NCBI GenBank assembly: GCA_034231615.1
Contig: CM067315.1
Span: 13,443,713 to 13,507,712 of the forward strand
DNA: 64,000 bases
Direction: 5' to 3'
DNA from: Meghimatium bilineatum
Taxonomy: Eukaryota; Mollusca; Gastropoda; Stylommatophora; Philomycidae
Part shown: piece after piece, positions 47,966 to 62,984 of the stretch
Position numbering within the stretch: position 1 is the first letter of the stretch
Layout: the number at the start of each line of letters is the position of its first letter
Made by a program: the position numbers and the translations under genes
The notes under the pieces: generated by a model
What the model was told of the DNA's origin: nothing
What the model saw: the letters and a program-made list of their open reading frames with translations, nothing else
Database searches by the model: none

Positions 47966-48197
47966 GACATTTATTAAGAGACTTTTTAATAGAAATATAA
48001 CGTTAATTTGTACAGAATGACGGAATAGATCAATTTCATTTCTAATACGAAGCAATATCTGTTCCAAGAAGATTGTCAATGTTCTAAAGAAGCAAAGTAG
48101 TGTCAGCTGTAGCTAGATTTCTATCAGTAGAATAGCACGATTTTGTCTTTGTAATGATAACATGACATGTAATGAAGACACTAGACAGCTAAGCATT

Positions 48198-48272
48198 CCC
48201 CATCAAGGCCAGCACCGTGCAGTGGTGATGGGGCTTAGTTCAGCCATCAGGGGCTGGAAACTAAGACTGGTC
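48198..48272 (+). ncRNA. HDV-like self-cleaving ribozyme at the LINE 5' end
   Basis: Predicted by eye. P1: CCCCATC (48198-48204) with GATGGGG (48227-48233), 7 bp. P2: GGCCAG (48207-48212) with CTGGTC (48267-48272), 6 bp with one G-U. P3: ACC (48214-48216) with GGT (48224-48226), closing a 7-nt loop. P4: CAGCC (48241-48245) with GGCTG (48252-48256). Joining strand AAACTAAG, with the candidate catalytic C at 48261. Cleavage would fall just before 48198, the exact edge of the target-site duplication. HDV-like ribozymes at the 5' end are known in R2, RTE, Baggins and L1Tc elements. Confidence 0.85.
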
Positions 48273-48366
48273 GGGCAGTCCCATTCGAGCATGACCATAG
48301 TCCTGCCCAAGTAAGCAGAGTGCTGAAGACGGAGGCATCCAGCCAAAAGGCGCACAGATAATCAGG

Positions 48367-50916
48367 ATGCCACGCACAAAACACAATGGAAACATGTCTG
48401 TATCTATACAAAGTTATGGTGCCTGCCCTGTGGCGGACGTTCAGGCAGGGACGGTGTCGGGCCCTATACCTCGAAAGGGCCCAACCTCAGTTACTGAAAG
48501 TCCTTCTCAATTGCCTCGAGGAGCCAGGAGGCAAGGGAATAGAGCTACTGACCAAACAAGCAAACGACCAATAAAAATAATGCACTGGGATGCTGAGGGT
48601 GTCAACAGTAAAAGAGATGGATAAAGCAAAAAATTTGAACTTGAAAATGTCCTCAGTGAAGAACAAGTTAATGTATGCTGTATTCAAGAAACACACATCA
48701 GCAGCGACATAGCCTTCAAAATCAGAGGCTACCAGTGCTACCGATCTGACCGAAAGGACAGGCGAAAGGGTGGAATTCTGACACTTGTTAAAAACAATAT
48801 CAGCGCATGTCAGCTGGAAGTATATATGGAAAGGGCAGAATACCAGATGCTCCACCTAAAAACAGACAGTGCAGAATTCCATCTCCTGAACTACTACTGC
48901 CCAAATGATAAACCATTGGCACTAGACACAATTCCAGATAAGGAGAGACTTATGGTGTGTGGTGACTTCAACAGCCACTCTCGGAGCTGGGGCTACGACC
49001 ATATCGACAACAGAGGTGAGGAACTTGAGAGCTGGCAGGATGAAAATAATCTCATCCTTATTAACCAATCACCAGACTCACCAACCTTCTACTCGAGAGC
49101 ATGGCACACCACCTCTACACCAGATCTGGCATTCCACTCACCAGGCCTGGAATAGAACATCACACGTGTCGTTGGAAAGCAGCTTGGAGGTACTGACCAC
49201 AGACCAGTATTTCTGGAAATCCACAATGAATTTACCAAGGACAGCAGCACGCTCACTAGGTGGAACTATAAGAGGGCAGACTGGAAAATGTACCAGCATT
49301 TAACCAGTGTTCTAGCTAAGGACATGAACTTGGACAAAGACATCAATAGAGCAGTGAGTGAATTTAATAGGTGTATACTACATGCTGCTAGTAAAACCAT
49401 ACCCAGGGAGGCAAGCAAGAACTACAAACCCTACTGGAATAATGAACTGGAAAAGCTGCAAAATGAGATGGAAACATCTAGACAGCAGGCTGAGAACAAA
49501 CCTAGCCAAGAACATCACAACAAATATCAGCAAACAAAGGCTAAATTTCAAAGAGCCAAGTTACAAGCCAGACGGAGCAGCTGGAAAGAAAAAACAGAGT
49601 CGCTGAACCTAGAAAGAGATACTAGGAAATTATGGAAACTTGTAAAACAACTAAATGATGAAGGTACAGGGAGAAATACCAGGATCACACTTTATAAAGA
49701 TAGAAACATTTTAACAGGTAAACATGCAGCTCATTACTTTGCAGAAGACAATAACGTCAAAGTCAGCCCAGACAAACAACAGGAGGTTCGAGAGAACCAG
49801 CAAAACATTGGACAAGGCGAACCTATACCTGAAGTCATGGAGGCACCAATCACAATGAGAGAACTGGAGCATGCAATATCCAAATTGAAAATGAAAAAGT
49901 CCCCTGGAGCTGATGGAGTGTCCAATGAAATGATTAGAAACCTGGGAATTGCAGCAAGAGCAAAGCTATTGCAGATCTTTAACACAAGCTGGTCCACAGG
50001 TAATGTACCACAGGCGTGGAGAGAAGCAATAATGATACCACTCCTCAAATCAGGAAAAGATGGCAACACAGTCTCCAACTACAGGCCCATCAGCCTCACA
50101 AGCTGTCTATGCAAAACAATGGAACGCATTATCAATCTTAGGATGCAGTGGTACCTTGAAAGTGAAAATCTTCTGGTATCACAGCAAGCAGGTTTCAGAC
50201 AGTGCTACTCTACTGAAGATCAGGCAACCTACCTCTCCCAAGAGATTGAGGATGCCTTCCAAGAGAAGAAACTGGTACTAGCAGCATGGATAGACCTCAG
50301 AAAAGCATTTGATAAGGTCTGGAAAGAAGGGCCCCTAAAGAAATTGCGAAATTGCAGGGTTAGCTCAAGAATATACAAATGGGTAAAAGCATACCTGTAT
50401 AATAGAAGAGCCAGGGTACAATTAGATGGTCGCAAGAGCAAGAAAGTTTTACTGCGTCATGGAGTCCCTCAGGGAGGAGTCCTGTCACCCACACTTTTCT
50501 TGGTTTACATCAATGACCTAGTTGCTGAACTACCACATGGGATCAAAGTGGCAATGTATGCTGACGACCTGGTGATATGGTGCACAGAAGAACATGCGAC
50601 AGTGGCCACTAAACAAATACAAAGAGCTATCGATGTCCTAACCTTATGGGCTAATAGATGGTACGTCAGCATTAACACAGATAAGTGCAGCACTACACTC
50701 TTTACCCTCTTACCAAAACAAAAAGCCGGTCATATCAAGATAGATGGAGAGCTCTTGAAAGAAGAAAAACAACCCACATACCTCGGAGTTACTTTTGATG
50801 ATAAACTGATATGGAAGCAGCACATAAACAAAGCAACAACAAAAGCCAGGAGGAAGTTAACTGTCCTGAGAAAACTAAGTGGAACCACATGGGGAGCCAG
50901 TGGAAAAACTCAGTAA
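48367..50916 (+). pseudogene. LINE endonuclease-reverse transcriptase ORF with two internal stops
   Basis: From the ATG at 48367 one phase runs to the TAA at 50914, interrupted by TAA at 48622 (codon 86) and TAG at 49153 (codon 263). Endonuclease motifs: IMHWDAEGVN, CIQETHIS, RKGGILTLVKN, MVCGDFNSHSRSWGY, TSTPDLAFHS, GGTDHRPVFLE. RT motifs: KKSPGADGVSNEMI, PLLKSGKDGN then YRPISLTSCLCKTMERI, QAGFRQCYSTEDQ, AAWIDLRKAFDKVW, GVPQGGVLSPTLF, MYADDLVIWC (YADD at 50557), YLGVTFDDKLIW. The nuclease nicks the target and RT extends from it. All key residues visible are kept, so the damage is recent. Confidence 0.9.
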
Positions 50917-50919
50917 AGT

Positions 50920-52220
50920 TTACTAGCAAGGCATAAGACCACACCTGGAATATGGTTCAGCTGCGTGGTGTTCTGCATCAAACACCACATTACAAGATCT
51001 AGATAAAGTGCAAAACCAGGCACTTAGAATAATGTTGGGAGCAATGAAATCAACACCCATAGCAGAGATGCAGAAAATGGGAAGAATGCAAACACTTGGC
51101 GAACGCAGAGACACAAAAGGACTAATTCAAGCAGAAAAGTTTCAGTGTATGCCAAGTCATCCAATGAAGGAAAGATTCCAAAATCTAGCAATGAGGAGAC
51201 TGAAAAGAAGCAGCTTTATCCATAAAGCTAAACGACTCCGTAGACAACTTACAGACCTACCTGAAGTTGACAGCCCCTTAAGGCCTGTACCAGAACAAAC
51301 CCCGTGGAGTGAAAGGCATGGAATGTCAATATACATTCAGACCCATGTGAAAGGAATACTAAGCGAGGACGAACAGAACAATGTGCAGCGAATGACAGTC
51401 ACCCTCAGTTTCCTGGATGAGGAATATCCACAAGATATATGGGTCAGAGTATACACAGATGGGTCAGCACAGAATGCTGTGAGGAATGGAAGTGCAGGTG
51501 TATATATAGAATATCCACACAAGCCTAGAGATACCATCAGAACACCGACAGGAAAATTCTGCAATAATTATGATGCTGAAATCCATGCAGTTTGGCATGC
51601 AAGAGATAGTGTGGCAGCTAAAAAACTGCTGAACTCCAACTCTGACCTACAGCCTGTGGTATTCCTGACAGATGCAATGGCAGTGCTTCAAGCTCTCCAG
51701 TCTGGAAAACTAACAGACTTGAAAAAAACTACTTAGCGAATTGTCTTACTAGTATAGGGTAACCATACAGTGGATACCCTCTCACTGTTGAATACCAGGA
51801 AATGAAAAAGCAGACCAACTGGCTAAGGAAGGTGCTGCCGAAGACCAACCAGATATACCAATCACCTACCATCAGAAAAAACAGTTGATCAAGTCAATAA
51901 GAAAGCCACAAACACCAACACAAGATGACTATCATATTATGAACAGACCAGAACAAGTTATAATTCTACGTCTCAGAACAGGACACAACCGTCTCCGCAG
52001 TCACATGTATACAAAGTTCAAGATTGGCAACACGGCCATGTGTACATGTGGACAGGCAGCACAGAGTGCCAAACATATACTTCAAGAGTGTTCTGAGCAT
52101 GAAACGCTGAGGCAGACGTATTGGCCAGAGGAAACAACACTGGAATCAAAGCTCTATGGGACACTGTATGAACTACAAAAGACAGTGAGTTTTATTAAGG
52201 AGACAGAATTACAGATATAG
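50920..52220 (+). pseudogene. LINE thumb, RNase H and Cys/His tail, frame-broken
   Basis: After a frameshift near 50915 the reading resumes IRPHLEYGSAAWCSASNTTL, DKVQNQALRIMLGAMKS. RNase H: YTDGSAQNAV (51452), NNYDAEI, FLTDAMAV. A 15-nt insertion near 51590 (relative to 56345-57341) adds five codons after DAEI. An extra A near 51730 shifts the frame, TAG replaces Gln in the strand after LLSELSY, and TGA replaces Gly in SHCGIPG. The tail is intact: RLRTGHNRLRSHMYTKFKI, CTCGQAAQSAKHILQEC, ending in stop at 52220. Confidence 0.88.
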
Positions 52221-52294
52221 ACATGTTTCAAGTGAACGAAAGAAGAAGAAGAAGAAGAAGAAGCTAAGAATTGTTACATATTCTCTCCATCTCT

Positions 52295-52478: not shown

Positions 52479-53431
52479 CATCTAGATTAGAATAACTCTT
52501 TCAAAGTAGGTAAAAGGCATCACAGGCCCACTTGTACCATCTAGATTAGAATAACTCTTTCAAAGTAGGTAAAAGGCATCACAGGCCCACTTGTACCATC
52601 TAGATTAGAATAACTCTTTCAAAGTAGGTAAAAGGCATCACAGGCCCACTTGTACCATCTAGATTAGAATAACTCTTTCAAAGTAGGTAAAAGGCATCAC
52701 AGGCCCACTTGTACCATCTAGATTAGAATAACTCTTTCAAAGTAGGTAAAAGGCATCACAGGCCCACTTGTACCATCTAGATCTTCTTCATCTTCTCGTT
52801 CGCAGTTTGACATGTCTACACAGCAAGTCCTGTTTTCTTAATAAATGCTGCTGTATTTGAAAGCTCCTCAGTGCTCCAATTCATCTTTATGTGGATATCC
52901 ATATATGTGGGCCAGTGTTCTTCCCTTAACTGGTTTAGTGTATTGCAGTCTTGCAGGATATGTTCAGTGGTCTGTGCTGCCTGCCCACACGGGCACAGTG
53001 GTGATGGAACCAATCTTAGCCTACTTAAGTGGCTATTTAATCTGTTGTGTCCTGTTCTGAGGCGGAAGATAATAACCTGCTCTGCTCTGTCGAGATATTG
53101 GTAATTGTCTTTTGGGTGATCGACTTTCCTGCATCTAGATTAGAATAACTCTTTCAAAGTAGGTAAAAGGCATCACAGGCCCACTTGTACCATCTAGATT
53201 AGAATAACTCTTTCAAAGTAGGTAAAATGCATCACAGGCCCACTTGTACCATCTAGATTAGAAAAACTCTTTCAAAGTATGTAAAATGCATCACAGGCCC
53301 ACTTGTACCATCTAGATTAGAAAAACTCTTTCAAAGTATGTAAAATGCATCACAGGCCCACTTGTACCATCTAGATTAGAAAAACTCTTTCAAAGTATGT
53401 AAAATGCATCACAGGCCCACTTGTACCATCT
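52479..53431. repeat. 59-bp minisatellite, about 10 units, split by a LINE
   Basis: Unit CATCTAGATTAGAATAACTC, TTTCAAAGTAGGTAAAAGGC, ATCACAGGCCCACTTGTAC. About five units lie on each side of the LINE at 52783-53131. Left units are identical to each other; right units after the first shift to AAAATGC and GAAAAACTC. Confidence 0.95.
52783..53131 (-). mobile_element. 5'-truncated LINE tail inside the 59-bp array
   Basis: Minus strand, ending GAACGAGAAGATGAAGAAG at the left. It encodes IIFRLRTGHNRLNSHL, CPCGQAAQTTEHILQDC, WPTYMDIHIKMNWSTEEL, FIKKTGLAV, the Cys/His tail of an RNase H LINE. Direct repeats CATCTAGAT at 52774-52782 and 53132-53140 come from the array unit itself. Confidence 0.9.
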
Positions 53432-53512
53432 TGTACTTTTGTGTGTCTTCTTATACGAGCAGCCCTAGAACTATCTGCGGTCACTTTTTCTTTGGTCTTT
53501 ATACCATTCCTG

Positions 53513-56332: not shown

Positions 56333-57307
56333 ATGATATATACCAGACAACTTACAGACCTACCTGAAGTTGACAGCCCCTTAAGGTCTGTACCAGAACA
56401 AACCCCATGGAGTGAAAGGCATGGAATGCCAATATACATTCAGACCCATGTGAAAGGAATACTAAGCGAGGACGAACAGAACAGTGTGCAGCGGAGGACA
56501 GTCACCCTCAGTTTCCTGGACGAGGAATATCCACAAGATATATGGGTCAGAGTATACACAGATGGGTCAGCACAGAATGCTGTGAGGAATGGAGGTGCAG
56601 GTGTATATATAGAATATCCACACAAGCCTAGAGATACAATCAGAACACCGACAGGAAAATTCTGCAATAATTATGATGCAGAAATCCAGGCAATTACTGT
56701 GGCAGCTAAAAAACTGCTGAACTCCAACTCTGACCTACAGCCTGTGGTATTCCTGACAGATGCAAGGTCAGTGCTTCAAGCTCTCCAGTCTGGAAAACTA
56801 ACAGACTTGAAAAAACTACTTAGCGAATTGTCTTACCAGTATAGGGTAACCATGCAGTGGATACCCTCTCACTGTGGAATACCAGGAAATGAAAAAGCAG
56901 ATCAACTGGCTAAGGAAGGTGCTGCCGAAGATCAACCAGATATACCAATCACCTACCATCAGAAAAAACAGATGATCAAGTCAATAAGAAAGCCACAAAC
57001 ACCAACACAAGATGACTATCACATTATGAACAGATCAGAACAAGTTATAATTCTACGTCTCAGAACAGGACACAACCGACTCCGCAGTCACATGTATACA
57101 AAGTTCAAGATTGGCAACACGGCCATGTGTACATGTGGACAGGCAGTACAGAGTGCCAAACATATACTTCAAGAGTGTTCTGAGCATGAAACGCTGAGGC
57201 AGACATATTGGCCAGAGGAAACTACACTGGAATCAAAGCTCTATGGGACACTGTATGAACTACAAAAGACAGTGAGTTTTATTAAGGAGACAGAATTGCA
57301 GATATAG
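56333..57307 (+). CDS. Intact 324-codon RNase H / Cys-His frame of truncated LINE
   Basis: The ATG at 56333 belongs to the duplicated target, not to the LINE; the LINE frame is entered in phase at about codon 5. RNase H removes RNA from RNA/DNA hybrids. Catalytic residues visible: Asp77 (YTDGS), Glu117 (NYDAE), Asp143 (FLTDA), His180 and Asp190 (SHCGIPGNEKAD). A Cys/His cluster follows: Cys266, Cys268, His277, Cys282 (CTCGQAVQSAKHILQEC). No stop or shift in 324 codons. There is no evidence of a promoter, so expression is unknown; an open frame in a recent truncated insertion need not be functional. Confidence 0.7.
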   Translation: MIYTRQLTDLPEVDSPLRSVPEQTPWSERHGMPIYIQTHVKGILSEDEQNSVQRRTVTLSFLDEEYPQDIWVRVYTDGSAQNAVRNGGAGVYIEYPHKPRDTIRTPTGKFCNNYDAEIQAITVAAKKLLNSNSDLQPVVFLTDARSVLQALQSGKLTDLKKLLSELSYQYRVTMQWIPSHCGIPGNEKADQLAKEGAAEDQPDIPITYHQKKQMIKSIRKPQTPTQDDYHIMNRSEQVIILRLRTGHNRLRSHMYTKFKIGNTAMCTCGQAVQSAKHILQECSEHETLRQTYWPEETTLESKLYGTLYELQKTVSFIKETELQI

Positions 57308-57341
57308 ACATGTTTCAAGTGAACGAAAGAAGAAGAAGAAA
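56345..57341 (+). mobile_element. 5'-truncated young copy of the 48 kb LINE
   Basis: Nearly identical to 51243-52261 apart from point changes and the indels described there. Ends GAACGAAAGAAGAAGAAG. Flanked by a 13-bp perfect target duplication AATGATATATACC at 56332-56344 and 57342-57354. Confidence 0.95.
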
Positions 57342-58568: not shown

Positions 58569-59237
58569 CAGGTTTCCCGGTATTTTCAGCTATCTAGAGT
58601 GTGAGGAGATTTCTCTGTACTTTCAACTATCTAGAGTGTGAGATTTCTCTGTACTTTCAACTATCTAGAGTGTGAGATTTCTCTGTACTTTCAACTATCT
58701 AGAGTGTGAGATTTCTCTGTACTTTCAACTATCTAGAGTGTGAGGAGATTTCTCTGTACTTTCAACTATCTAGAGTGTGAGATTTCTCTGTACTTTCAAC
58801 TATCTAGAGTGTGAGATTTCTCTGTACTTTCAACTATCTAGAGTGTGAGATTTCTCTGTACTTTCAACTATCTAGAGTGTGAGATTTCTCCGTACTTTCA
58901 ACTATCTAGAGTGTGAGATTTCTCTGTACTTTCAACTATCTAGAGTGTGAGATTTCTCCGTACTTTCAACTATCTAGAGTGTGAGGAGATTTCCCGGTAC
59001 TTTCAACTATCTAGAGTGTGAGGAGATTTCTCTGTACTTTCAACTATCTAGAGTGTGAGGAGATTTCTCTGTACTTTCAACTATCTAGAGTGTGAGGAGA
59101 TTTCTCTGTACTTTCAACTATCTAGAGTGTGAGGAGATTTCTCTGTACTTTCAACTATCTAGAGTGTGAGGAGATTTCTCTGTACTTTCAACTATCTAGA
59201 GTGTGAGGAGATTTCTCTGTACTTTCAACTATCTAGA
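58569..59237. repeat. 34/38-bp minisatellite, about 19 units
   Basis: Unit GTGTGAGATTTCTCTGTACT then TTCAACTATCTAGA; the 38-bp form has an extra AGGA after GTGAG. Long forms lie at the left edge, once in the middle and in a run at the right; short forms are clustered between. Confidence 0.96.
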
Positions 59238-59333
59238 GACCTGAACAAAGTTTAATCCGGCAGTGTATGCTGTCAAGTCCGTAAATAAACGGGGAAGCAT
59301 TCAACATCCCCTTCTTAGAAAATATAAACACGC

Positions 59334-61655
59334 CATTTAGTACTAGAATGTAGGTAAAAACATTTAGTACTAGAATGTAGGTAAAAACATTTAGTACTAG
59401 AATGTAGGTAAAAACATTTAGTACTAGAATGTAGGTAAAAACATTTAGTACTAGTATGTAAGTAAAAACATTTAGTACTAGAATGTAAGTAAAAACATTT
59501 AGTACTAGGATGTAGGTAAAAACATTTAGTACTAGAATGTAGGTAAAAACATTTAGTACTAGAATGTAGGTAAAAACATTTAGTACTAGAATGTAGGTAA
59601 AAACATTTAGTACTAGAATGTAAGTAAAAACATTTAGTACTAGAATGTAAGTAAAAACATTTAGTACTAGAATGTAAGTAAAAACATTTAGTACTAGAAT
59701 GTAAGTAAAAACATTCAGTACTAGAATATAAGTAAAAACATTTAGTACTAGAATGTAGGTAAAAACATTTAGTACTAGGATGTAAGTAAAAACATTTAGT
59801 ACTAGAATGTAGGTAAAAACATTTAGTACTAGAATGTAAGTAAAAACATTTAGTACTAGGATGTAAGTAAAAACATTTTGTACTAGAATGTAAGTAAAAA
59901 CATTTAGTACTAGGATGTAGGTAAAAACATTTAGTACTAGGATGTAGGTAAAAACATTCAGTACTAGAATGTAAGTAAAAACATTTAGTACTAGGATGTA
60001 AGTAAAAACATTTTGTACTAGAATGTAAGTAAAAACATTTAGTACTAGGATGTAGGTAAAAACATTTAGTACTAGGATGTAGGTAAAAACATTTAGTACT
60101 AGAATGTAAGTAAAAACATTTAGTACTAGAATGTAAGTAAAAACATTTAGTACTAGAATGTAAGTAAAAACATTTAATACTAGAATGTAAGTAAAAACAT
60201 TTAGTACTAGAATGTAAGTAAAAACATTTAGTACTAGAATGTAAGTAAAAACATTTAGTACTAGAATGTAAGTAAAAACATTTAGTACTAGAATGTAAGT
60301 AAAAACATTTAGTACTAGAATGTAAGTAAAAACATTTAGTACTAGAATGTAAGTAAAAACATTTAGTACTAGAATGTAGGTAAAAACATTTAGTACTAGA
60401 ATGTAAGTAAAAACATTTAGTACTAGGATGTAAGTAAAAACATTTAGTACTAGAATGTAGGTAAAAACATTTAGTACTAGAATGTAAGTAAAAACATTTA
60501 GTACTAGGATGTAGGTAAAAACATTTAGTACTAGAATGTAAGTAAAAACATTTAGTACTAGAATGTAAGTAAAAACATTTAGTACTAGAATGTAAGTAAA
60601 AACATTTAGTACTAGAATGTAAGTAAAAACATTTAGTACTAGAATGTAAGTAAAAACATTTAGTACTAGGATGTAGGTAAATACATTTAGTACTAGAATG
60701 TAAGTAAAAACATTTAGTACTAGAATGTAAGTTAAAACATTTAGTACTAGAATGTAAGTAAAAACATTTAGTACTAGAATGTAAGTTAAAACATTTAGTA
60801 CTAGAATGTAAGTAAAAACATTTAGTACTAGAATGTAAGTAAAAACATTTAGTACTAGAATGTAAGTAAAAACATTTAGTACTAGAATGTAAGTAAAAAC
60901 ATTTAGTACTAGGATGTAGGTAAAAACATTTAGTACTAGAATGTAAGTAAAAACATTTAGTACTAGAATGTAAGTTAAAACATTTAGTACTAGAATGTAA
61001 GTAAAAACATTTAGTACTAGAATGTAAGTTAAAACATTTAGTACTAGAATGTAAGTTAAAACATTTAGTACTAGAATGTAAGTAAAAACATTTAGTACTA
61101 GAATGTAAGTAAAAACATTTAGTACTAGAATGTAAGTTAAAACATTTAGTACTAGAATGTAAGTAAAAACATTTAGTACTAGGATGTAGGTAAAAACATT
61201 TAGTACTAGAATGTAAGTAAAAACATTTAGTACTAGAATGTAAGTAAAAACATTTAGTACTAGAATGTAAGTAAAAACATTTAGTACTAGAATGTAAGTA
61301 AAAACATTTAGTACTAGAATGTAAGTAAAAACATTTAGTACTAGGATGTAGGTAAAAACATTTAGTACTAGAATGTAAGTAAAAACATTTAGTACTAGAA
61401 TGTAAGTAAAAACATTTAGTACTAGAATGTAAGTAAAAACATTTAGTACTAGAATGTAAGTTAAAACATTTAGTACTAGAATGTAAGTAAAAACATTTAG
61501 TACTAGAATGTAAGTAAAAACATTTAGTACTAGAATGTAAGTAAAAACATTTAGTACTAGAATGTAAGTAAAAACATTTAGTACTAGAATGTAAGTAAAA
61601 ACATTTAGTACTAGAATGTAAGTAAAAACATTTTGTACTAGAATGCAAGTAAAAA
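59334..61655. repeat. 27-bp minisatellite, about 86 units
   Basis: Unit AAAACATTTAGTACTAGAAT then GTAAGTA; subtypes GTAGGTA, TAGGAT and GTTAAAA recur in patterns. Two minus frames stay open for 811 and 777 codons (VFTYILVLN and HSSTKCFYL repeats) purely because 27 is a multiple of three. Confidence 0.98.
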
Positions 61656-62984
61656 TGTGATTAACCACCTCACCCCCCCCCCAAAAAAAAATTTAGTACT
61701 AGGATGCCAACAAAACCTTATTAACCCCCCCCCCCCCCCATTTTCCCTTATTACTTTCTAAAAATAAAAAAACATAATCAAAAACGCCCCAAAAAAACCC
61801 AGTAATTACGAAAACGATTAAATGAGTGGTATAGTCAGTTATGGCCTCACAACTCCCCCCCCCCCATATATAAGATCTTATATGCTGCTCAAGAGAACAA
61901 TGATAATGGTTGTGATATCCATATTTTCCACACAAAAATCCAGTCATGATAGAATTTCTGTACATGATTTATTGCTTATACCTGCTGTTGTGAGGACATA
62001 ACTTGGGTCAAATACTTATGAACCAGTTTTACGATGAGGAGTTTCCGGTGAGTGGGCTATTTGGCGTGAGTAAACTAAGTTCAAAAAAATATTGGTACGA
62101 AAAATACGCATTCACCGGGTTGATGTAACAAAATATTGTCCACTCCCTTTTGGTATTTCATGGCCGAGATAGACGGTGCTGGCTCAGTTTTGCTATCCCA
62201 TTACAGTTTTTCTAATATTGCTAAAGTAAACGTGTCTGCATGCCAGACTCGTGCGCGATCTGCGTGATGTACGCAGGTGTGCCTGTACCTAAACGCTCTA
62301 CAGAGGTAAAGCAGTACATTACAAGGTCTCTGCTTACTTTTCAATAGTTATAACACCACTATTACCTTGCACTCGCCTCACCTCGTCAGCAGTACCCACT
62401 ACACCCGGGTGTAAAACAACACCAAATTTTATGTGCATACGTTTCACTGCCAAGAAATAACAACACACTAACTGAATACGCACAATCTTACACGATGACT
62501 TTCTAACTGGTAATATTCATTCATAAATTTATTGTCTTTAAATACATTATACGTAACCATCAACATTATAAGATATTATGGCTAATGGGTAAACAAACTT
62601 TTAAAATGAATCATTTTTTTCCCGTTACATTCATTGGCTGTCGACACACAGTATAATCATGATGACAATGACAGTTACAGGAAAAGGAAAATTGTAAAAA
62701 AATTACAGATTTTGAAAAAGTCTAAATCTAAAAAAAAAGTATAAATTTTGAAAAAGTCTAAATTTTTAAATTGTCTGTAAAAAGTTACAGATTTGGAAAA
62801 GTTACAGGACAAGGCATATGACTCATTTTAGAAGAATGTTTTCTCATTAGCCATTAGTTCTTATATGCCGACAAACCTGCTGTATACAACACTTGCAAGA
62901 AACAAAAAAAAGTTTCATTTGTCATTCTGCGCTTAAATTTTTTTTTAATCATTCACAAGGTGTAGAGGATTGACTTCGTTGTAT
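61656..62984. other. Unassigned DNA with poly-C tracts
   Basis: C runs near 61672, 61725 and 61855. A short repeat of AGATTTTGAAAAAGTCTAAA lies at 62700-62765. No gene recognised. Confidence 0.4.

What the first reader, a model, noticed from the sequence alone, without database searches (positions are those of the whole stretch)
48198..48272. HDV-like ribozyme sits exactly at the first base of a full-length LINE
Four helices, a 7-nt P3 loop and the CTAAG joining strand can be drawn without forcing, and the predicted cleavage site coincides with the edge of an 11-bp target-site duplication that was found independently at the 3' end. That a reverse-transcribed copy begins at the cleavage site implies that the ribozyme frees the element's RNA from upstream transcript. 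Family precedent: R2, RTE, Baggins and the trypanosome L1Tc. I do not know whether this LINE family has been described with it.
Basis: partly seen in the sequence, partly recalled or inferred. Interest (0 to 1): 0.9.

Follow-up and report, generated by a model that had tools for sequence, protein, structure and literature searches.

The report
Self-cutting RNA at LINE start

Summary
Window 48198-48272 can be folded as an HDV-like ribozyme (P1 7 bp, P2 6 bp, P3 with 7-nt L3, P4, J4/2 with CUAAG) starting at base 1 of a ~4.06-kb EN-RT-RNase H LINE. Base 1 is a sharp 5' end: 16 of 20 copies picked by an internal segment start there, and 35 of 39 copies with a findable tail have a target-site duplication abutting it. 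Chance is unlikely: 0 of 20,000 shuffles match at base 1; 6 other start positions match among ~128,000 in the window. Two other LINE families with a mapped 5' end do not match. Against it: no covariation (compensatory cells P1 0, P2 1, P4 2), no Rfam match on this strand, half a P1.1, and a more stable hairpin that hides CUAAG. The window copy has G at L3 position 20, where 34 of 40 copies have U. Most likely an active HDV-like ribozyme, in layout like the L1Tc/ingi type, trimming co-transcripts: a new member of a known kind, catalysis unproven.

The parts
48187..48197 (+). 5' target-site duplication (agctaagcatt)
   Evidence: (11 nt, 1 mismatch to 52262-52272)
48198..52261 (+). full-length LINE copy (EN-RT-RNase H family), ORF broken in this copy
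48198..48272 (+). HDV-like ribozyme candidate
48198..48204 (+). P1 5' strand CCCCAUC; predicted cleavage just before 48198
48207..48212 (+). P2 5' strand GGCCAG
48214..48226 (+). P3 (ACC/GGU) with L3 48217-48223 (GUGCAGU here; position 20 is U in 34 of 40 copies)
48227..48233 (+). P1 3' strand GAUGGGG
48234..48238 (+). J1/4 CUUAG; complementary to CUAAG at 48261-48265 (competing hairpin)
48239..48259 (+). P4 stem-loop (UUCAGCC/GGCUG-G-AA)
48260..48266 (+). J4/2 ACUAAGA with the presumed catalytic C48261
48267..48272 (+). P2 3' strand CUGGUC
49288..50916 (+). ORF fragment with reverse transcriptase (RVT_1)
51008..51736 (+). ORF fragment with RNase H (24.7 bits, below the Pfam cut-off of 25.8, in this broken copy; 59.5 bits in the intact copy L047)
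52262..52272 (+). 3' target-site duplication (agctaagaatt) after the GAA-repeat tail

Best explanation
The first 75 nt of this LINE are a self-cleaving RNA of the HDV-like class, closest in layout to the L1Tc/ingi type (P1 starting with CCC). Transcription that starts upstream of an inserted copy runs into the element; the nascent RNA folds P1, P3, then P4 and P2, and C64 (window C48261) in CUAAG acts in cleavage just 5' of C1. The element's RNA is released with its whole 5' end and the ribozyme stays in it, so reverse transcription gives copies that begin at C1 at each new site. Shown: the fold is possible, lies exactly at base 1, and base 1 is the usual 5' end of copies. Inferred: folding in the cell, catalysis, release from a co-transcript, and the role in the life cycle.
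For: Fold at base 1: 6 other start positions of ~128,000 in the window and 0 of 20,000 shuffles. Sharp 5' end: the 39 fetched copies and the window begin at the same base (L039 has a changed base 2, so its alignment begins at 3, but its duplication abuts base 1); these were chosen by a query that begins 8 bases upstream. In a sample chosen by element 601-1001, 16 of 20 begin at base 1 (20 of the 40 listed places read). 24 older copies chosen by a pattern that begins at base 16 lose similarity just upstream of base 1. Target-site duplications abut base 1 in 35 of 39, without added bases. L3 keeps U20 and G25 in 34 of 40 copies; a G in L3 that pairs with a U there was needed for cleavage in a Nasonia R2 (PMC3774820, section 12). 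Older and younger subfamilies differ within the 75 nt at positions 8 (J1/2) and 23 (L3), position 22 being forced by the search pattern, and at 87, 101, 122 and 141 just downstream. Specificity: sister family Y (43% amino-acid identity) and a 1026-aa LINE family, each with a 5' end mapped from two copies, do not match. L1Tc Pr77 as printed in PMC4748587 (passages) begins CCC and has CCACC at 16-20 and CGTG at 25-28; this element has CACC at 16-19 and AGTG at 24-27, the same spacing.
Against: No covariation: among 37 distinct sequences, compensatory cells are 0 (P1), 1 (P2), 2 (P4) against 34, 15 and 18 broken (14 of the 34 lie at pairs 5-32 and 6-31, for which 19 of the loci had been picked). 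Two groups of copies carry a P1 mismatch: 11 with U31 (one, L057, has A6 and so pairs) and 6 with A32, part of them sharing other changes, so P1 was perhaps not always kept. P1.1 can form only G22-C37; U21/U38 do not pair. The minimum-energy fold (-30.9 kcal/mol) pairs CUUAG with CUAAG and leaves out P2; P1+P3+P4 alone give -18.9 and P2 as a duplex -7.4. Folding energy is only 2.0 SD below shuffles, 10 of 200 as good. Rfam finds nothing on this strand even at E 10; drz-agam-1 matches weakly on the opposite strand (15.1 bits, gathering 37, E 1.6). G20 in 6 of 40 copies, the window included, and in 3 of the 18 copies of the second sample that reach L3. No cleavage data.
Confidence: 0.74

Rival explanations
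1. The 5' end is fixed by an internal promoter that starts transcription at C1, and the stem-loops are promoter or packaging structure, not a ribozyme.
For: Many LINEs start transcription at their own first base (recalled); L1Tc Pr77 is itself a promoter with a DPE motif CGTG at +25 to +28 (PMC4748587, passages). A sharp 5' end alone fits this equally well.
Against: CGTG is AGTG at the matching place. The HDV-like match at exactly base 1 would be a coincidence. No added bases at the 5' junctions that have a duplication; cap-derived extra G is known from other LINEs (recalled). Dual use, as in L1Tc, is possible.
Confidence: 0.15
2. A ribozyme-derived relic: the ancestor carried the ribozyme, present copies keep the sequence but fold into the stronger CUUAG/CUAAG hairpin and no longer cleave.
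For: Competing hairpin in the minimum-energy fold; half P1.1; groups with P1 mismatches; G20 in 6 of 40 copies including the window.
Against: Bases 1-75, CUAAG included, are identical in 32 of 40 young copies of a family in which 4 of 39 copies still have a 1305-codon ORF; a dead motif should drift between subfamilies. An attenuating downstream region and a switch after cleavage are described for L1Tc (PMC4035085, section 3), so a switch does not exclude activity.
Confidence: 0.09
3. Chance resemblance of a stable hairpin pair to the HDV-like fold.
For: Descriptor matches elsewhere in the window at 6 start positions; no covariation; no Rfam match on this strand.
Against: 0 of 20,000 shuffles at base 1; match exactly at the element's first base; CUAAG and the L3 U/G in place.
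Confidence: 0.02

Closest known systems
L1Tc/ingi-clade HDV-like ribozyme (Pr77, trypanosomatids)
   Same: At base 1 of an EN-RT-RNase H LINE; first bases CCC; CACC followed after 4 nt by (C/A)GTG; cleavage just upstream of the ribozyme (PMC4748587 passages; PMC4035085 sections 3 and 9).
   Different: Other helix sequences; DPE motif CGTG not kept; host unnamed, with a 1.6-Gb genome that does not suggest a trypanosomatid (inference); activity shown for L1Tc, not here. The comparison rests on the few letters and positions printed in PMC4748587.
R2 retrotransposon ribozyme
   Same: HDV-like fold with P1, P2, P3, P4, an L3 with a conserved G; 5' processing of a LINE co-transcript (PMC3774820, abstract and sections 12, 18, 19).
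   Different: R2 inserts in 28S rDNA and in many species cleaves upstream in rRNA sequence; here flanks differ from copy to copy and the cut would fall on base 1. L1Tc/ingi and R2/HDV ribozymes are said to differ in the orientation of P1 G-C pairs (PMC4035085, section 9); here C is on the 5' side.
HDV-like ribozymes of RTE and Baggins LINEs, drz-Agam-1
   Same: 5' end of LINEs, same class (Ruminski et al. 2011, recalled; not held).
   Different: Rfam model drz-agam-1 does not match on this strand and only weakly on the other; the LINE clade differs.
Twister ribozymes at the 5' end of RTE elements
   Same: 5'-end processing of a LINE by a self-cleaving RNA (mentioned in PMC7761336, passage).
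   Different: Another ribozyme class; no twister among the Rfam matches of the loci scanned (L009, L051, L052, L131).

Membership tests
HDV-like ribozyme | P1 of about 7 bp whose 5' strand begins at the cleavage site and whose 3' strand directly follows P3 | tested here: met
   CCCCAUC/GAUGGGG
HDV-like ribozyme | P2 pseudoknot between the P1-P3 joint and the 3' end | tested here: met
   GGCCAG/CUGGUC, 6 bp with one G-U; pairing only, not covariation
HDV-like ribozyme | P3 with a 7-nt L3 holding a U and a G that form a reverse wobble | tested here: met
   U20 and G25 in 34 of 40 copies; the window copy has G20, so it is not met in that copy
HDV-like ribozyme | P1.1, two base pairs between L3 and J1/4 | tested here: inconclusive
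   G22-C37 can pair, U21/U38 cannot. L1Tc/ingi ribozymes are said to differ from HDV and R2 in the number of P1.1 pairs (PMC4035085, section 9)
HDV-like ribozyme | J4/2 with the catalytic C followed by purine-rich bases | tested here: met
   CUAAG at 48261-48265; what the joint looks like in known ribozymes is recalled
HDV-like ribozyme | Score above the Rfam gathering cut-off of an HDV-like model | tested here: inconclusive
   Not reached; no + strand match at E up to 10. Not a defining feature by itself: nested models cannot hold P2, and the Rfam set is narrow (recalled)
HDV-like ribozyme | Compensatory changes in relatives | tested here: inconclusive
   None convincing among 37 distinct copies; copies are too similar or decayed
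HDV-like ribozyme | Self-cleavage 5' of P1 | not testable with these tools
   Needs a bench assay; copy 5' ends agree with it
Ingi-like LINE (I superfamily) | One ORF with AP-type endonuclease, reverse transcriptase, RNase H | tested here: met
   L047 ORF: PF03372/PF14529, PF00078, PF00075
Ingi-like LINE (I superfamily) | Reverse transcriptase groups with the Ingi clade in a tree | not tested
   No reference Ingi proteins were at hand; Ingi is reported as frequent in some gastropods (PMC11203168, passages)

The most novel reading that the evidence does not exclude
The ribozyme is a homologue of the trypanosomatid Pr77/L1Tc ribozyme in an Ingi-like LINE of a large-genomed, probably animal host (host not identified), so the CCC-first type of HDV-like ribozyme would be an old 5' module of this LINE lineage, lost or replaced in the sister family Y; and the perfect CUUAG/CUAAG complement acts as a built-in switch that shuts the ribozyme after the cut and protects the released RNA.
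Probability: 0.22. Interest if true: 0.62.

Novelty: new member of a known kind. Interest (0 to 1): 0.45.

Why it matters
It would add a young EN-RT-RNase H LINE family (4 of 39 fetched copies with a 1305-codon ORF) to the list of LINEs with a 5' self-cleaving ribozyme, apparently outside trypanosomatids and outside R2 and RTE. Because the sister family Y in the same genome has a different 5' end, the pair would let one test what the ribozyme buys a LINE: dependence on host transcripts, exact 5' ends, uncapped RNA. Seven searches of the open library listed no report of it; they miss most subscription papers, and Repbase was not searched.

Tried and rejected
Rfam at gathering level (whole window) and E<=10 (48100-48400) gave no match on this strand; L009, L051, L052 and L131 gave no ribozyme family. 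A covariance model without P2 (R1) could not be run on the whole genome; on 17 held sources, the window included, it found only 48198-48275 and one weak match, E 2.9, at 50489-50551 minus. Pattern searches for diverged relatives gave copies of the same family, young and old, plus an old repeat (group b) and some single hits. RNase H families X, Y and Z: only Y is close, and it lacks the fold; the three X copies fetched share no 5' end. One older partial 5' end beside L038, the 41st match, has lost P1' by a deletion.

Dropped before counts: 12 of 84 sequences (26, 19 young; the window was not in this set) that differed at more than 14 of 78 places, mostly out of register; L057, the one possible P1 compensatory case (T6-A31 to A6-T31), is among them. 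In the same call the competing CUUAG/CUAAG hairpin had 0 compensatory and 8 broken cells, CTAAG being forced in the copies. In one search, 2 of 26 copies were dropped as segmental duplicates. In one search, one of 40 copies had no recognisable tail; 4 of the other 39 failed, one of them (L027) because the first tail motif was taken; one search shows its duplication. Of the 45 hits, 40 were fetched; L084 of these does not hold the whole pattern.

Full report
What is there. Window 48198-52261 is a full-length copy of a LINE in a 1.6-Gb genome of 32 contigs. Read from its first base, CCCCATC (P1) AA GGCCAG (P2) C ACC (P3) GTGCAGT (L3) GGT GATGGGG (P1') CTTAG TTCAGCC (P4) ATCAGG GGCTG G AA A CTAAG A CTGGTC (P2') gives all helices of the HDV-like double pseudoknot in the right order.

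Chance. I wrote a general descriptor (P1 6-8, J1/2 0-6, P2 5-8, P3 3-4, L3 6-8, J1/4 0-8, P4 at least 4, J4/2 with C-N-R-A) after seeing the candidate; it was not run on known ribozymes. Over both strands of the window it matches 8 start positions of about 128,000, two of them 48198 and 48199, the others 21833, 21834 (+) and 44303, 46322, 46323, 47520 (-). At base 1 it matches 0 of 20,000 dinucleotide shuffles of the first 110 bases of the copy L009. The plain folding energy is less striking: z = -2.0, 10 of 200 shuffles as good.

The 5' end. Of the 41 matches to 48190-48600, the window and 39 fetched copies start at the same base after unrelated flanks (L039 has a changed base 2); the 41st is an older partial 5' end. 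That sample was chosen by a query covering base 1, so I took a second one by an internal segment (element 601-1001; 40 places listed) and read 20 of them: 16 start exactly at base 1, one matches from base 3, one from base 16, two have no element at the expected place, and the 14 bases printed upstream differ from copy to copy. Older copies found by a pattern that begins at base 16 also lose similarity just before base 1 (24 of 26 used). Target-site duplications (passing score 8) abut base 1 in 35 of 39 copies with a findable tail, against 2 of 1,482 mismatched pairings, and the mean score is highest with the border at base 1. Where there is a duplication, no extra bases lie between it and C1.

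The element. Four of the 39 fetched copies have an ORF of 1305 codons with AP-type endonuclease, reverse transcriptase and RNase H (L047); the window copy is broken. A sister family Y shares 43% of residues over 1289 aa and has another 5' end, mapped from two copies (L051 and L052), without the fold from 5 bases before to 39 after its start and without a match to model R1. A 1026-aa LINE family, mapped from L131 and L133, starts with GATTTCCGG and has no match in its first 30 start positions. Target-site duplications of these two families were not checked. Layout and domains suggest an Ingi-like LINE, not tested by a tree.

Variation. Of 40 young copies, 32 are identical over bases 1-75; 6 have T20G (one of these also G35A), one C2A and one G36A. 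G20 is also in 3 of the 18 copies of the second sample that reach L3, two of these with another change at position 24. An older subfamily differs within the 75 bases at 8 and 23 (22 was forced by the search pattern) and at 87, 101, 122 and 141 downstream. Counting pairs on 37 distinct sequences gives compensatory cells 0 (P1), 1 (P2), 0 (P3, forced by the patterns), 2 (P4) and broken cells 34, 15, 0, 18. Of the 34 in P1, 14 lie at the two pairs for which 19 loci had been picked. The changes look like post-insertion decay, and I read the test as without power rather than as support. Two groups have a P1 mismatch: 11 copies with T31, of which L057 has a matching A6, and 6 with A32; 4 of the 11 and 3 of the 6 share a further change. 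That hints that P1 was not always kept perfect in copies that were multiplied, or that some were mobilised in trans.

The competing fold. The minimum-energy structure keeps P1 and P4 but extends P4 by CUUAG/CUAAG and forms no P2: -30.9 kcal/mol, against -18.9 for P1+P3+P4 plus -7.4 for P2 as an isolated duplex. So catalysis, if it happens, may depend on folding during transcription, or the hairpin may be a switch. For L1Tc a structural switch after cleavage is proposed (PMC4035085, section 3).

Comparison. Known cases are R2 (PMC3774820: abstract, sections 12, 18, 19 read), L1Tc/ingi (PMC4035085: abstract, sections 3, 5, 9, 13 read; PMC4748587: passages; PMC8256844: passages), and, recalled, RTE and Baggins. 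PMC4035085 section 9 says the R2 and HDV ribozymes differ from the L1Tc/ingi ones in the orientation of the G-C pairs of P1 and in P1.1; this element starts with CCCC and has only half of P1.1, as that type might. PMC4748587 gives the first 15 letters of Pr77 and the places of CCACC (16-20) and CGTG (25-28); the spacing agrees with CACC (16-19) and AGTG (24-27) here. This is a resemblance in layout; homology is not shown.

Mechanism and verdict. Most likely (0.74) an active HDV-like ribozyme trims read-through transcripts to base 1, leaving the ribozyme in the RNA so that it is copied to each new site. Position, chance statistics and copy ends are shown; folding in cells, cutting and release are inferred. 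Seven searches of the open library listed no report of this family with the ribozyme (listings only, except the papers named here and PMC7761336, PMC11203168 and PMC8190864, of which I saw passages or, for the last, a search without hits), so I rate it a new member of a known kind.

Noticed in passing
L080-L092 (e.g. G000:C9:51188590-51188860): An old repeat of roughly 100-150 bp, about 77-88% alike between copies, some with the textbook-like core CACC-TCCTCGT-GGTG and a possible P1 CCAGGGT/ACCCTGG; no P2 partner or host element found.
   Followed up: partly
window 56344-57340: A second, 5'-truncated copy of the same LINE, 98% identical to L009, holding the RNase H end.
   Followed up: partly
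L037: A 1.03-kb internally deleted copy with the ribozyme, the 3' tail and a target-site duplication with one mismatch: a possible non-autonomous derivative.
   Followed up: no
L051, L052: Sister LINE family Y starts at ATCCTGG with strong predicted 5' hairpins; what fixes its 5' end is unknown.
   Followed up: partly
L112-L130, element positions 31 and 32: Among copies changed at these places, A31T and T32A outnumber the transitions one would expect, and some share other marks: perhaps small subfamilies with a mismatch in P1.
   Followed up: partly
window 52490-53440: A minisatellite array is interrupted by what looks, by eye, like the reverse-strand 3' end of another RNase H LINE at about 52780-53130.
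   Followed up: no
window 59233-61668: Very long minisatellite with open frames of 777 and 811 aa on the minus strand, presumably not a gene.
   Followed up: no
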